Notes under the pieces: generated by a model
What the model was told of the DNA's origin: nothing
The model's database searches: none
What the model saw: only the letters and a program-made list of their open reading frames with translations
Assembly: GCF_017875315.1 (NCBI RefSeq)
Contig: NZ_JAGGMM010000003.1
Location: 62,001-126,000, forward strand
Reading direction: 5' to 3'
DNA length: 64,000 nt
Source of the DNA: Methanomicrobium sp. W14
GTDB taxonomy: Archaea; Halobacteriota; Methanomicrobia; Methanomicrobiales; Methanomicrobiaceae
Position numbers and translations under genes: made by a program
Shown here: positions 3,374 through 12,340 of the stretch, piece after piece
Layout of the letters: each line of letters starts with the position of its first letter
Position numbering within the stretch: position 1 is the stretch's first letter

Positions 3374-6300
3374 TCACTCCAGAACAAACCTGACCTTTGA
3401 CCTGTCCTGCCCCTTGATTTTGTCATCAATAAAATCATTAAAGACTTTCTTTAACTCATCAGGAGTTGCAGCGCCGCCTGATTTTTTAAGAGCACTAAAT
3501 ACTTCATTAGATGTTATGTTAATTCCCTTAAGACCTGATAAAATTCTGTCAACTGTCCCTGTAAATTCACTGTCAACGTGATTTGGAAGAATGCCTGTTG
3601 AAATAAAGTCTTCAACTGCTTCTGCTTCATCGGCATTTAACAATTTTACAGCCTTCAGTGACATTGGATCTTTAAGGTTTGTATGAAGAATTGCTGTCCA
3701 CTGTTCTAGGATATTATCTAAGTCCTCATCAAGACTATCCAGAATAATTCCTGAGGAGATATTTCCAAATTCAGATTTTGCTTCAACAGACGGCCTGAAA
3801 CCACAGTGAGGGCATACCGGATTTTTATCCAGATCTTCTTTTAATAACTCATAGCATGTATTAAGACTGCCAAGCTTATCCCTGAAATCCTTAATCTCCT
3901 TTTTTGGAATTAGAGATATAACAGAAAGGGCATCTGCAGTTTTTAATCTGCTGTCATTTATCAGTGCATTCTTTCTTCCATCCTCATTCATTCCAAGCCT
4001 GGCACTTGAATGCAGCTTTATGTAGATATTGATGTAATTTTCCTTTAATTTATTAAGCTCAGATGATAACTCCGAAGCATATCTTTTCAACTCTTCCGGT
4101 TTCATACTGCGAATATCATTAATAACCCGTGATTTAACGGAATCAGCAGTTTCTATCCATGTATTATCGTAAGGCAGAATTTCTTTTGCTGTAGTTAACC
4201 ATCCGCAGATCTGCCCGAATTTACTGATATAATCAATATAATTCTTTAATTCAGAAACAACTCTGTATTTACTGCTTATATCAGATATATCGGAGACACT
4301 GTACTTAAAATTCTTAAAAGAGCCTGGAGTCTTGTAGTTTTGTACAGATTCAAAGAAATTCTTTGCCGCATCTAGAGCAGCAATCTTCTCTTCAAGGATT
4401 GTTTTTGATATTAAATCTTCACCCCATAGAGTAATTCCCATTGAAGTATTCTGCTTGATTTCAAGTATCTCCTTTATCCTTTCAGAAGCTTTAACCTGAA
4501 TATCTGCAACTACATCATCTTTGCCCTGTGATAAAAGCTGTCCCTTTCCCGAAGGCAGGTCGAAAAGTTCACAAAGTGATTTTAATACAGGCAGATTCCA
4601 TTCTTTTGGAGGTTCAATATGTTTAAAGTTGATGAGATCCTCAACAGAAACCGAGGCCAGCTTATCAACCGAAGTTGAATCAAATTTCTGGCCGGGAATT
4701 GCCAAAACTCCGTCACCTGAATAGACAATTGCAGAGAGCAGAACAACAACCCATTCTGGTTCAAGCCTTGCCCCTTCAGGGTCCATATACTCAAGACCCA
4801 AATCATCATTTAGAATTTCATTGCGGTTTAATACCTGTCCGGCTCCTTTCTCTCTCATCAGATTAAGAATAAATTGTACATATCGGGATCTTTCAGGAGC
4901 AAGTCTTTCACCATCAAGAAGTTCAAGTGCGTCTGAAACTGCAATAGCTTGCTTGGTCCTGGACTGGTTTGCAATAAGCCGCAAGGCATCTTTTGCAGCC
5001 TGTTTTCTACTGTCATTGCGGACCATTACTGAAAAGACAGGGTAGTCAGGAGCTATATCTGAAAAATGCGGTTCAAGACATGTTCCTGCTACAGTATTAA
5101 TCAGGTCGCGGAAATTGACAATTTTCTCTGAACCTCCTGTGGAGAAATCCTTTAGTGACCTGTTGGATTTCCATTCAACCAGCGATTTTGTTTCACCCTG
5201 ATATGTTATTTCATAAGCTGAGTACAGATTTTTTGAAAGCCAGCTAACTAGTTTTCGCAGATTCTCTTCTGCTTTTGAATGATATGTTGATTTAGCTGAT
5301 CCTGAGGATGTTCCTGCAAGTTCACCTGCACCTGCGTATTTTTTTAAAGCTAACAGAAATTCAGTATCAGGATTTTTCAGCCTGAAAAATACCTCATCTG
5401 ATTTCTTTTCATCCTTAAATTTAGGAGGATCATAAGGTTGGATGAAATAAAGATAAAAATCACGTTCCGGAACTGTTGTTGAACGCTCATTTGGAACACC
5501 AAAGAAAAGATATCCCATTCTTGATGCACGTTTTTCATGCCATTCAAGCTCATATTCCCATATATTAAAACCGGTACGATAAGTCTGGGTTGAACATTCC
5601 ATCAGCTGACTTAATGCAGAAGCGTAATACCTGTCAAGAATATTGTCATCAAGAGTCTCAGCTTTCTTTTCAATTATGGCATCATAATCTTCGGTCTTTT
5701 TTAAATCCAGATAAAATTGCCGGTTATCTGGATTTGAAGAGATAAACTGACCGTTTACGGTCTTATGAATCTCTCTTAAAACAGTTTCAACGTGTGATAA
5801 AAGATCATCGGCGGGATCTCCTCCAAGTTGTGCTATATTACTATCATAAAGGCAAAGACTGTCCCTTAACTCTTCGGGAGTTGCCCCAACTTTTGCATAA
5901 ATATCACCCGTTGTAAGTCTGTGGACAGAAAGTCCGGCTATAATCCGAAGGGCAATTGGCTTATATAGGGGTTTAGTAAATGCCTGTTCAATCCTCGTTT
6001 TAAGGACATCACTACAGTCAATAACTTCTCTTACTTCAGGAATTGTTCTTATTGATGAATTATCCGTAAGAACTTTCCAGTAAGAATCATATGCAATAAG
6101 ACCTGGCCTGTCATCAGGTAGAGAATCTTCAAGAATATTTCGCATACTCAATGACAGAGTCTTTAATACCTCTCTTTTTTCTACAATAGTCACATGTTCA
6201 AATGTATTGATATAATCCGGGTGAACAGGAAAAAGGCTAACAAAATCATCCATCCTTTCATTCATATCACTATAATACATAGCAAAAGGAGAGAGATATT

Positions 6301-7114
6301 CCCTGATTTTCTGCATCTGATCGGCATTTTTCTTTAAAAGACGATTGGATACAACATATTTTACATCATTTCTGGCAATATGGACCTGTTCAAAGCGATC
6401 TTTTACTCTTAAAAGACTGTTCGCAACAAAAGAGAAGCGATCATTATCAAAAATAGCCTCTTGCAGTCCTGCAATAAACCTGAACCTGAGTGACTTTGTT
6501 ATTTCACCTATCTCACGTAAAAAATTTAGATCCAGAATAAGTGCCTGTTCTTTTCTTGTTCGCAGATAATCGAGCAATTCATCCACAACAAGCAGCAGAC
6601 CTTTATCAGGATACTTCTGGTGGAAAAGAGACATCATCTCTTCAAAAGAACTGATATGATTTGGAATTGTATTTGCAGGGGGGAATGAATAATTTATACC
6701 ATAATTTCTTAATTTCTCTTCAAGTTCGCCCGTAATTATGTCACGAAGTGACATTTCAGATGCCCCTATTTCACTTCTGATTGCAATGAATTTTCCTGCA
6801 ATACTTTTTGCGGACTCTGAAATATCCTTGTTTGACAATTCTTCAAGTAATGTTTCATCCTCGGCTATTGATGAAATAACAGACATCAGGTGAGACTTAC
6901 CTGTACCATAATTTCCAACAATAAAAATACCTTTATTGTCACAGGGAGAACCAAACTGAACCTGTGGAAAAACAAGAGATGTTAATCTTTCAGACATCTC
7001 ACCAGAGATAACATAATCTCTGACTAACTGAATTGCGGTAGATTTTTTTTCAGAATCAACAAGTTTTATTACTGACTCGATTGGTTGAAAATTAATTAAA
7101 TCCTTATACTTCAT
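3374..7114 (-). CDS. brxC: BREX type 3 large ATPase BrxC (DUF6079 family)
   Basis: A ~1246-residue P-loop protein. The Walker A GNYGTGKS lies near residue 70 and the Walker B LLLVVDEL near residue 175, as in BrxC/PglY ATPases of the AAA+ type. A zinc-knuckle-like CPHCGF lies near the C terminus. The size, the DUF6079-like organisation and the small P-loop gene immediately upstream identify BREX type 3. BrxC is thought to act with PglX and PglZ in exclusion of phage DNA. The start was set at 7114 (MKYKDL) because GGGGA lies about 9 bases upstream; ATG 7120 and TTG 7129 are alternatives. The end nearly abuts the AlbA_2 gene, so the two are probably cotranscribed. Confidence 0.85.
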   Translation of the reverse strand: MKYKDLINFQPIESVIKLVDSEKKSTAIQLVRDYVISGEMSERLTSLVFPQVQFGSPCDNKGIFIVGNYGTGKSHLMSVISSIAEDETLLEELSNKDISESAKSIAGKFIAIRSEIGASEMSLRDIITGELEEKLRNYGINYSFPPANTIPNHISSFEEMMSLFHQKYPDKGLLLVVDELLDYLRTRKEQALILDLNFLREIGEITKSLRFRFIAGLQEAIFDNDRFSFVANSLLRVKDRFEQVHIARNDVKYVVSNRLLKKNADQMQKIREYLSPFAMYYSDMNERMDDFVSLFPVHPDYINTFEHVTIVEKREVLKTLSLSMRNILEDSLPDDRPGLIAYDSYWKVLTDNSSIRTIPEVREVIDCSDVLKTRIEQAFTKPLYKPIALRIIAGLSVHRLTTGDIYAKVGATPEELRDSLCLYDSNIAQLGGDPADDLLSHVETVLREIHKTVNGQFISSNPDNRQFYLDLKKTEDYDAIIEKKAETLDDNILDRYYASALSQLMECSTQTYRTGFNIWEYELEWHEKRASRMGYLFFGVPNERSTTVPERDFYLYFIQPYDPPKFKDEKKSDEVFFRLKNPDTEFLLALKKYAGAGELAGTSSGSAKSTYHSKAEENLRKLVSWLSKNLYSAYEITYQGETKSLVEWKSNRSLKDFSTGGSEKIVNFRDLINTVAGTCLEPHFSDIAPDYPVFSVMVRNDSRKQAAKDALRLIANQSRTKQAIAVSDALELLDGERLAPERSRYVQFILNLMREKGAGQVLNRNEILNDDLGLEYMDPEGARLEPEWVVVLLSAIVYSGDGVLAIPGQKFDSTSVDKLASVSVEDLINFKHIEPPKEWNLPVLKSLCELFDLPSGKGQLLSQGKDDVVADIQVKASERIKEILEIKQNTSMGITLWGEDLISKTILEEKIAALDAAKNFFESVQNYKTPGSFKNFKYSVSDISDISSKYRVVSELKNYIDYISKFGQICGWLTTAKEILPYDNTWIETADSVKSRVINDIRSMKPEELKRYASELSSELNKLKENYINIYIKLHSSARLGMNEDGRKNALINDSRLKTADALSVISLIPKKEIKDFRDKLGSLNTCYELLKEDLDKNPVCPHCGFRPSVEAKSEFGNISSGIILDSLDEDLDNILEQWTAILHTNLKDPMSLKAVKLLNADEAEAVEDFISTGILPNHVDSEFTGTVDRILSGLKGINITSNEVFSALKKSGGAATPDELKKVFNDFIDDKIKGQDRSKVRFVLE

Positions 7115-7147
7115 TCCCATATTCCCCAAAATAATATAATTTACCTT

Positions 7148-7615
7148 TTAATTCTTATCCATAGTAAATTTGATCAAACCGTCTGCATTATATTTCCGGT
7201 ATTCAGGATGTCCGGACTTACCATAGATTAATGAGTTGTCTTCAATGATGCCATTCCAGGTTGCAACTATACAATAATTTCTTGCCAACTCCTGAAGAAG
7301 CTTAAGCGGATCTATTTTTAATTCTGTATCAAAAAGAATTTCAGAATTGTCCAGAAGAATAACATCTTCTGACTCACAGTTTTGTTTTATAATGTCATAG
7401 AGAGTTTTTGATGCATTTAGCATTCTCTGCCGTTTTGACATATCAAGAAGAAGTTTTGATAATTCCAAATTAACATTAAGAATTGATGAACCTGTTTCCT
7501 GGCCGATTTTTCTTAAAAGATCTGTTTTTCCACTATCAGATGGTCCTATTATCAGTATTAATCGGTTATATTGGGTTCTGGACCTTTCAATTTCCTGAAT
7601 AATTTTATTTTTCAT
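7148..7615 (-). CDS. brxF: BREX type 3 P-loop protein BrxF
   Basis: A 155-residue small P-loop protein. The Walker A GPSDSGKT lies near residue 25 and a Walker B-like VILLDNSE lies near residue 95. The size and the position just upstream of a DUF6079 BrxC are the signature of BrxF, found only in BREX type 3. The ATG at 7615 (MKNKII) was chosen because GGTGA lies about 8 bases upstream; a second in-frame ATG at 7630 is possible. This is the first gene of the minus-strand BREX operon, so the operon promoter should lie between 7616 and 7754, a region shared with the divergent zinc-ribbon gene. Confidence 0.8.
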   Translation of the reverse strand: MKNKIIQEIERSRTQYNRLILIIGPSDSGKTDLLRKIGQETGSSILNVNLELSKLLLDMSKRQRMLNASKTLYDIIKQNCESEDVILLDNSEILFDTELKIDPLKLLQELARNYCIVATWNGIIEDNSLIYGKSGHPEYRKYNADGLIKFTMDKN

Positions 7616-7754
7616 AAATAAATTCACCATCTAATCAAAATCAACTATAAAAATTATGTATTGAAACATAATTGCCAGTACATAGTAGATTATGTGAATC
7701 TCTAATAAATAACCTGCAGTGAAATCCATAAATATTCACAACAATACCCTTATC

Positions 7755-9175: not shown

Positions 9176-9328
9176 TGTCGCAGGAATAACGCGCCATCAG
9201 AATTCCCAATATTTAATCACAGATTCTATGACATGATTAAATTTATGCTGATTAGAATCCACAATGTAATTAAAATAACAATAAATTACTAATTATTTTG
9301 TAAAAGAGCTTTGAACCTTGCGTATTGA

Positions 9329-9402
9329 TGCTGATATGGGGATTCGAACCCCAGTCGCAGGAGTGAGAGTCCTGCATGATTGGCCGGCTACACTATATCA
9401 GC
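9329..9402 (-). tRNA. tRNA-Glu (anticodon CUC)
   Basis: On the minus strand the acceptor arms GCTGATA and TATCAGC pair perfectly. The anticodon stem GCAGG/CCTGC closes a loop containing CTC, and the T arm is CTGGGGTTCGAATCCCCA, with the expected GTTCGAATC core. The D-arm sequence with CCGGCCAATC is typical of archaeal tRNA-Glu. The discriminator base is A at 9329. CCA is not encoded, and no intron is seen. The gene lies downstream of mtrH on the same strand. Confidence 0.95.
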
Positions 9403-9592
9403 AGAAAAGTGCCAGATTATATTTACAGGAAAAGGATTTAAACATAATTGTTTGGCATCACAAAAGAACTGAAAAAACCCGAAAAATTATCATGCCACAG
9501 TAAAAATCCAGATAAAAATACGGGACTACTCTTCTAAATACCGGATACAGGACTGGCTATTTCAAAACAGAACCAGAAACCGGAGACGAAAT

Positions 9593-10656: not shown

Positions 10657-11397
10657 TTAAATCATTGCCATAAGTTTCGGGAGTAATACCAGCAACATCA
10701 TGAATACAATAATGCCTGCTGTAAGACCGTAAAGAATACCGATATCACGGCCAATTTTACGTCCTGCACGCTGGGCAATTTCAGCATCTGCAAATTCAAG
10801 CTTCTTTTCGATTTCGTTGAGGCGTGCCTCAATCTCAAGGAACTGCGGATTTGCGGTTGCAACAACGGCGCCTCCGTCTGCATCTCCGGACTCTTTGACC
10901 TCAACTATCATCGGTTCAGCGTCAAAGGCTCCGGGATCACGGGCCGAGAGTTCATCGATTTTGGCTTTGATTGTACCAAGATCCTCGGTTTCCATGATAT
11001 CAACCACTTCAACCTGATCCTGGAAACGCCCGATTGCATCTGCTGTAAGATTCTCAATGAATGGAATTGCACCCTGTGCCCCGACAATCTTTCCGCCCTC
11101 AACACCACCTGTGTGAAGGGCCTTTAAGCACTGACCGGAGAGGTGACCCTTTACCTCCGTTCCGCATGTGACAAGGAAACGGATGTTCGGGTTTGCGATA
11201 ACATTTGCAACAATTTTCTCCAGACCGAGGTTTTCTGTTTTGCAGGAGCCGCACATGGCAGCGCCCGCATCACAAACGGCCTGTTCGTCAAGGTGTGAAC
11301 CCATCGTAACGACAACAACAGAACTGTTGGTATCACCCGTGTGGTAGTCACCCTGTATTTTTGGCCATCCGGACGCCGGTGATTTCTTGTCGGCCAT
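10657..11397 (-). CDS. MtrA corrinoid domain fused to MtrG
   Basis: A 246-residue protein. Residues 1-169 are a second MtrA domain, differing from the operon's MtrA at only about 19 positions and keeping the corrinoid-ligand His (His85 in EVKGHLSG). From about residue 183 the sequence changes family: [15 protein letters not shown] and GRDIGILYG followed by one transmembrane helix are the MtrG pattern. No separate mtrG exists; the fusion occupies the mtrG position between mtrF and mtrH, so it probably supplies MtrG to the complex while adding a second cobamide carrier per protomer. It starts 3 bp after the mtrF stop. Intact domains argue against an assembly artefact. The family assignment of both halves is secure; the function of the extra corrinoid domain is inferred. 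Confidence 0.9.
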
Positions 11398-11399
11398 CT

Positions 11400-11612
11400 T
11401 CAGACGCCTCCCATCAGAAACACCGGTACAAGAACCAGAAGAAGCGACAGTATAAGACCTATAGCAAATCCTGTAATGCCTGCTCCCATTATGCCGGACT
11501 CAAGCTTGTTTGTCCTGGCCATAATCTGACCCTTGTAGCGCATATCCTCGATCATGTCATCAATTGCTGCCATCCTGATAATTGCCGGACCTGATTTCTC
11601 TTCATCTGACAT
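11400..11612 (-). CDS. mtrF: Tetrahydromethanopterin S-methyltransferase subunit F
   Basis: A 70-residue subunit. The [15 protein letters not shown] and [10 protein letters not shown] segments and a single C-terminal transmembrane helix are diagnostic of MtrF. It is a small membrane subunit of the sodium-pumping Mtr complex, related to the C-terminal anchor region of MtrA. It lies 5 bp after mtrA and 2 bp before the MtrA-MtrG fusion, so it is cotranscribed. Confidence 0.93.
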
Positions 11613-11617
11613 TTATA

Positions 11618-12340
11618 TCACCCCATTAGCATGAAGCCAAGTATGACAAAAGACACGATCAGACCGATCATGAGTCCTTCAACTTTTCCTGAGTATACAC
11701 CTGCCGAGAAGCGGTCACGGTAGCCGATATCTGTAATCATCATCTGAATTGTCTTCATCCTTGCGTGGATAAGAGCAAGTTCAGCTGACATCGGCACTTC
11801 CTCGCCTTCCGACTCGCCGGCATCGTCGCCGCCTTCCTTAACCTCGACAACCATGGCGTCGCCCTCAAACGCACCCGGATCGCGGGCTGTGAGCTCATCG
11901 ATTTTGGCTTTGATTGTGCCCAGATCCTCGGTCTCCATAATGTCGACCATTTCGATCTGGTCCTGGAAACGCTTGATTACTTCAGGTGTAAGATTTTCGA
12001 TGAACGGAATTGCACCAGTTGCTCCGACAATCTTTCCGCCCTCAACACCGTTTGCATGAAGGGCTTTTAAGCACTGACCGGAGAGGTGACCCTTTACCTC
12101 CGTTCCGCATGTGACAAGAAAACGGATGTTCGGGTTTGCAACAACGTTTGCGACTATTTTTTCAAGACCCAGGTTTTCAGTCTTACAGGAACCGCACATT
12201 GCAGCGCCTGCATCACAGACTGCCTGTTCGTCAAGGTGTGAACCCATTGTTACAACGACAACAGGACTGTTGGCATCGCCCGCGTGGTAGTCACCCTGTA
12301 TTTTTGGCCATCCTGAGGCCGGAGATTTTTTATCTGCCAT
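11618..12340 (-). CDS. mtrA: Tetrahydromethanopterin S-methyltransferase subunit A (corrinoid protein)
   Basis: A 240-residue corrinoid carrier that shuttles the methyl group between MtrH and coenzyme M. The soluble domain (residues 1-~170) has His85 within EVKGHLSG, equivalent to the cobalt-ligand His84 of the Methanothermobacter protein. A variable acidic linker and a helical segment lead to one C-terminal transmembrane helix of the usual MtrA type. Length is normal for the family. It is followed by mtrF and then by a second, almost identical MtrA domain fused to MtrG. Confidence 0.97.

What the first reader, a model, noticed from the sequence alone, without database searches (positions are those of the whole stretch)
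10657..11397. MtrA-MtrG fusion inside the mtr operon
The mtrG slot holds a protein with a complete MtrA corrinoid domain (His85 kept) joined to MtrG. The complex would carry two cobamide domains per protomer, one on MtrA and one on MtrG. This would change the stoichiometry of a core energy-conserving enzyme.
Basis: partly seen in the sequence, partly recalled or inferred. Interest (0 to 1): 0.7.

Follow-up and report, generated by a model that had tools for sequence, protein, structure and literature searches.

The report
Known MtrA–MtrG fusion in methanogens
The gene really fuses a vitamin-B12-carrying MtrA domain to the membrane subunit MtrG, but this is the standard, already published arrangement in the whole methanogen order Methanomicrobiales, not a peculiarity of this genome; what the extra B12 domain does has not been measured.

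Summary
ORF 10657–11397 (−) is a 246-aa MtrA–MtrG fusion in an mtrEDCBAF(A–G)H operon that also holds an ordinary mtrA. The fusion is the only MtrG in the 99%-complete genome, so every Mtr complex must carry it unless it is cleaved. The cobalt-ligating His85 (His84 in M. marburgensis), its partner Glu55 and the GAIPF loop are intact in it.

It is not new. Wang et al. 2015 (PMC4632066) described this mtrA-2b gene in all eight Methanomicrobiales genomes they had, with its MtrA domain homogenised to mtrA-1 by gene conversion. I re-tested this: MtrG was found in 163 of 199 genomes of the order and was fused in every intact copy I examined; 20 short frames, plus two broken copies, proved to be contig ends, N gaps or a frameshift. 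Elsewhere in the phylum MtrG is free-standing. In 46 genomes with both genes, the MtrA domains cluster by genome rather than by gene (separate clades rejected, p-AU 5e-71).

The window's own subclade shows weaker homogenisation (four-fold-site identity 0.58–0.75, against mostly above 0.82). Most likely function: a second corrinoid shuttle on each protomer, six per trimer. That stoichiometry is inferred and unmeasured.

The parts
10657..11397 (-). mtrA-2b: MtrA-MtrG fusion gene, 246 aa
   Evidence: only MtrG in the genome
10879..11388 (-). MtrA (corrinoid) domain of the fusion, residues 4-173
   Evidence: PF04208, E 3.1e-85; AF2 model with alternating strands and helices to residue 152
11143..11145 (-). 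His85 codon, lower axial cobalt ligand (His84 in M. marburgensis)
   Evidence: role from PMC4915002
11233..11235 (-). Glu55 codon, hydrogen-bond partner of the ligand His (Glu54 in M. fervidus homologue)
   Evidence: role from PMC4915002
10849..10902 (-). Gly/Ala/Glu-rich linker, about residues 166-183; low model confidence at 170-190
10687..10860 (-). MtrG domain, residues 180-237; stalk and membrane helix 184-245
   Evidence: PF04210, E 3.9e-23; AF2 helix; matches 9qtq_S and 8q3v_G
11406..11412 (-). Shine-Dalgarno-like GGGAGGC 8 nt before the fusion ATG
   Evidence: read directly
11618..12340 (-). mtrA-1, ordinary MtrA with its own C-terminal anchor
11400..11612 (-). mtrF
   Evidence: PF09472
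9619..10650 (-). mtrH
   Evidence: PF02007
12351..12635 (-). mtrB
   Evidence: PF05440
12638..13510 (-). mtrC
   Evidence: PF04211
13523..14353 (-). mtrD
   Evidence: PF04207
14350..15255 (-). mtrE
   Evidence: PF04206

Best explanation
This is mtrA-2b, the standard Methanomicrobiales form of mtrG. An ancestral duplicate of the mtrA corrinoid domain lost its own membrane helix and was fused to mtrG before the order diversified; gene conversion with mtrA-1 has since kept its MtrA domain alike (supported here and in PMC4632066). The fusion supplies the obligatory MtrG helix of the central stalk and hangs a second, catalytically equipped corrinoid domain from the stalk by a short flexible linker. 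Each protomer then has two mobile B12 shuttles (one on MtrA-1, one on MtrA-G; six per trimer) that pick up methyl groups from MtrH and deliver them to coenzyme M at MtrCDE, so one can be recharged while the other discharges (this last step is inferred, not measured).
For: Both domains match at full strength. The only MtrG in the genome is fused. MtrG was fused in every intact copy I examined in the order; the short frames I checked were contig ends, N gaps or one frameshift. Outside the order every listed MtrG frame is only 56-140 aa. His85 and Glu55 are invariant in both copies of all 46 genomes and GAI(P/A)F is kept in all. Within-genome MtrA domains average 96.6% aa and 87.7% four-fold identity against 77.4% and 40.4% between orthologues; all fusions as one clade is rejected. 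The window has no in-frame ATG/GTG/TTG between codons 164 and 200, and only 6 of 46 genomes have one in codons 168-200, so a free MtrG by internal initiation is unlikely. MtrG helices form the membrane core of the trimer and the soluble MtrA domain is a flexible shuttle in the solved complexes (PMC10998594, PMC12774963).
Against: I found no purified or solved Methanomicrobiales Mtr complex. Post-translational cleavage between the domains, or an apo MtrA domain on MtrG, is not excluded. Both solved complexes come from organisms with a free MtrG, so the geometry of the extra domain is extrapolated.
Confidence: 0.72

Rival explanations
1. The extra MtrA domain binds cobamide but serves mainly as a spare or buffer (dosage, a corrinoid store, or protection of the complex), with MtrA-1 doing the turnover.
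For: In the M. mazei structure only one MtrH of each dimer is thought to be well placed for MtrA (PMC12774963), so a second shuttle may have limited access.
Against: Catalytic residues and loops are conserved in the fusion of all 46 genomes, and no column shows a consistent A1/A2 difference, as would be expected if the roles had separated.
Confidence: 0.17
2. The fusion protein is cut after synthesis, releasing a soluble MtrA domain and an ordinary MtrG, so the complex has normal stoichiometry.
For: The linker around residues 170-190 has pLDDT below 50 and may be exposed.
Against: Fusion and linker length are conserved across the order with no free mtrG seen to re-evolve.
Confidence: 0.06
3. 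Each genome's fusion is a recent independent duplication of mtrA rather than an old fusion kept alike by gene conversion.
For: A1 and A2 of one genome usually cluster together.
Against: Same gene order, same junction and an orthologous MtrG tail in families f1-f6 of the order, which would need dozens of identical events; in several close pairs (L004/L005, L007/L008, L009/L010) A2 groups with A2 and A1 with A1, showing descent of the fusion as such.
Confidence: 0.03
4. Assembly artefact or chance.
For: Near-identical repeats do break assemblies here (many contigs end in this gene).
Against: The two window copies differ at 38% of four-fold sites, and single-contig genomes have the same arrangement.
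Confidence: 0.01

Closest known systems
mtrA-2b (mtrA-mtrG fusion) of Methanomicrobiales, Wang et al. 2015, PMC4632066
   Same: Same fusion, same place (between mtrF and mtrH), same second mtrA-1, homogenised MtrA domain.
   Different: No structural difference. The window's subclade is less homogenised than most (four-fold identity 0.616 in the window).
mtrA-2a (mtrA-mtrF fusion) of Methanococcales and Methanocella arvoryzae, PMC4632066
   Same: Second MtrA domain fused to another single-helix stalk subunit; also homogenised.
   Different: Partner is MtrF, not MtrG; an independent origin according to that paper.
Canonical Mtr complex of Methanothermobacter marburgensis (8Q3V) and Methanosarcina mazei (9QTQ)
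   Same: Same subunits; the MtrA domain and MtrG helix are each homologous.
   Different: MtrG there is free-standing, giving one corrinoid domain per protomer.

Membership tests
[quoted passage not shown]
mtrA-2b of Methanomicrobiales | Located between mtrF and mtrH, with mtrA-1 also in the operon | tested here: met
mtrA-2b of Methanomicrobiales | No separate mtrG gene | tested here: met
mtrA-2b of Methanomicrobiales | MtrA domain closer to the same genome's mtrA-1 than to other genomes' mtrA-2 | tested here: met
   L001_A1 and L001_A2 pair with 97/93 support; weaker than in most of the order, and by amino-acid identity L001_A2 ties with L006_A1
Functional corrinoid-binding MtrA domain | His84/Glu54 equivalents and GAIPF meander | tested here: met
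   His85, Glu55, GAIPFIEN
Functional corrinoid-binding MtrA domain | Actually binds 5-hydroxybenzimidazolyl cobamide and carries methyl groups | not testable with these tools
   needs protein
MtrG stalk subunit | Long single helix homologous to MtrG of the solved complexes | tested here: met

The most novel reading that the evidence does not exclude
In Methanomicrobiales the complex works with six corrinoid shuttles per trimer, matching the six MtrH active sites seen in M. mazei, so that both faces of each MtrH dimer are used and the two half-reactions overlap in time at each protomer.
Probability: 0.35. Interest if true: 0.6.

Novelty: already known. Interest (0 to 1): 0.22.

Why it matters
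Mtr is the sodium-pumping step shared by most methanogens. A built-in doubling of its B12 carrier in a whole order (and, with MtrF, independently in Methanococcales) suggests that carrier number limits or tunes the pump. The gene itself is known; the untested biochemical consequence, given that both solved structures come from organisms with free MtrG, is the part worth an experiment.

Tried and rejected
Assembly duplication: rejected by synonymous divergence and by single-contig genomes. Separate or internally initiated mtrG: no second MtrG in the genome, no in-frame start in the linker. Apparent exceptions in the order with short MtrG frames: G059, G046 (L085) and 20 more are contig ends, N gaps or a frameshift (G184). 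Genus g22 seemed to lack the system, but one contig stops inside an ordinary mtrA and the other hits are distant soluble homologues. Looking for paralogue-specific columns found none consistent across the order. Paper searches for proteomic or structural data on a Methanomicrobiales Mtr complex found none. A first alignment call failed because of a wrong strand and was repeated.

Full report
Observation. The ORF at 10657–11397 on the minus strand encodes 246 aa. Residues 4–173 match MtrA (PF04208, E 3e-85) and residues 180–237 match MtrG (PF04210, E 4e-23); the NCBIfam equivalogs mtrA and mtrG are both met above cut-off. The operon reads mtrE, D, C, B, A, F, A–G fusion, H, all on the minus strand. 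Blastp of the two window proteins gives 71% identity overall. Across the order, identity between the two genes is high through the MtrA domain and collapses at about residue 174–177.

Is it the only MtrG? Yes. A whole-genome search (2.54 Mb, 6 contigs, 99% complete) finds one MtrG, inside the fusion, and two MtrA above cut-off. There is no in-frame ATG, GTG or TTG between codon 164 and codon 200 of the window's fusion. The complex must therefore be built from the fusion, unless it is cleaved afterwards.

How widespread? In 199 genomes of the order, MtrG was found in 163. Most listed frames are about 200–320 aa, i.e. fused, with a minority of shorter ones. I followed up 20 short frames: all are contig ends, N gaps or, once (G184), a frameshift. 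The split copy in G059 is two contig ends and G046 has an N gap. I did not inspect every short frame, and the listing was truncated. Genomes without a match are often incomplete. In the rest of the phylum the listed MtrG frames are 56–140 aa, i.e. free-standing; L114 is one example outside the fused group, read in full, with separate mtrA, mtrF and mtrG. Named records with the fusion include Methanomicrobium, Methanoculleus, Methanoregula and Methanofollis. A shared contig length (336021) indicates that genome G005, in the window's genus, is Methanomicrobium mobile, so the window is probably a Methanomicrobium species in the sense of the genome collection (inference).

History. I extracted both MtrA domains from 46 genomes. 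Within a genome they average 96.6% amino-acid and 87.7% four-fold-site identity, against 77.4% and 40.4% between orthologues. A tree of 495 columns interleaves the two genes genome by genome (43 label changes), and the tree with all fusions in one clade is rejected (p-AU 5e-71). This reproduces, on about six times more genomes, the gene-conversion result of Wang et al. 2015 (PMC4632066), who named this gene mtrA-2b. I did not run GENECONV myself; the inference of conversion rests on this pattern plus the order-wide conservation of the fusion junction. The window and eight relatives in its family (L001, L003–L010) are less homogenised: four-fold identity 0.58–0.75, and in three pairs of close relatives A1 groups with A1 and A2 with A2. 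No column distinguishes A1 from A2 consistently across the order, so I see no sign of division of labour in the soluble domain.

How it probably works. In solved complexes, three MtrG helices form the membrane core of the stalk, the N-termini face the cytoplasm, and the soluble MtrA domain is a mobile shuttle on a disordered linker between MtrH and MtrCDE (PMC10998594, PMC12774963). An AlphaFold2 model of the fusion (mean pLDDT 76, pTM 0.64) shows a folded N-terminal domain, a low-confidence stretch at 170–190, and one long helix 184–245. The fusion thus places a second shuttle on the same stalk, with a linker of about 18 residues. With one MtrA and one MtrG per protomer this gives two corrinoid domains per protomer, six per trimer. 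The M. mazei complex carries six MtrH, so a one-to-one match of shuttles and MtrH sites is possible, but this is a hypothesis.

Verdict. What remains open is biochemical: corrinoid content, and whether the second domain turns over.

Noticed in passing
window 3374-7129 and 7148-7630 (-): BREX defence genes next to the mtr operon: BrxC (PDLC02482, full-length, 1756 bits) and BrxF.
   Followed up: partly
window 9327-9403 (-): tRNA-Glu (CTC) between the BREX side and mtrH.
   Followed up: no
loci L001, L003-L010: The window's subclade shows much weaker homogenisation of the two MtrA domains than most of the order; three pairs of close relatives show gene-wise grouping. Might indicate relaxed gene conversion.
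   Followed up: partly
locus L080 (G066): Outlier pair: fusion MtrA domain 84% identical and only 44% at four-fold sites to its mtrA-1, with a long A2 branch.
   Followed up: no
loci L129, L130 (G053, G068): Distant soluble MtrA homologues in genus g22; by eye L130 lies beside an ACR3-like arsenite-exporter-type membrane protein and L129 beside a permease and a universal-stress-type protein; not tested.
   Followed up: no
many contigs of the order, e.g. G059:C5 and G059:C7 (L083, L084): Assemblies often break inside this gene, as expected if mtrA-1 and mtrA-2 act as near-identical repeats; annotations of draft genomes may therefore miss or truncate mtrG.
   Followed up: yes
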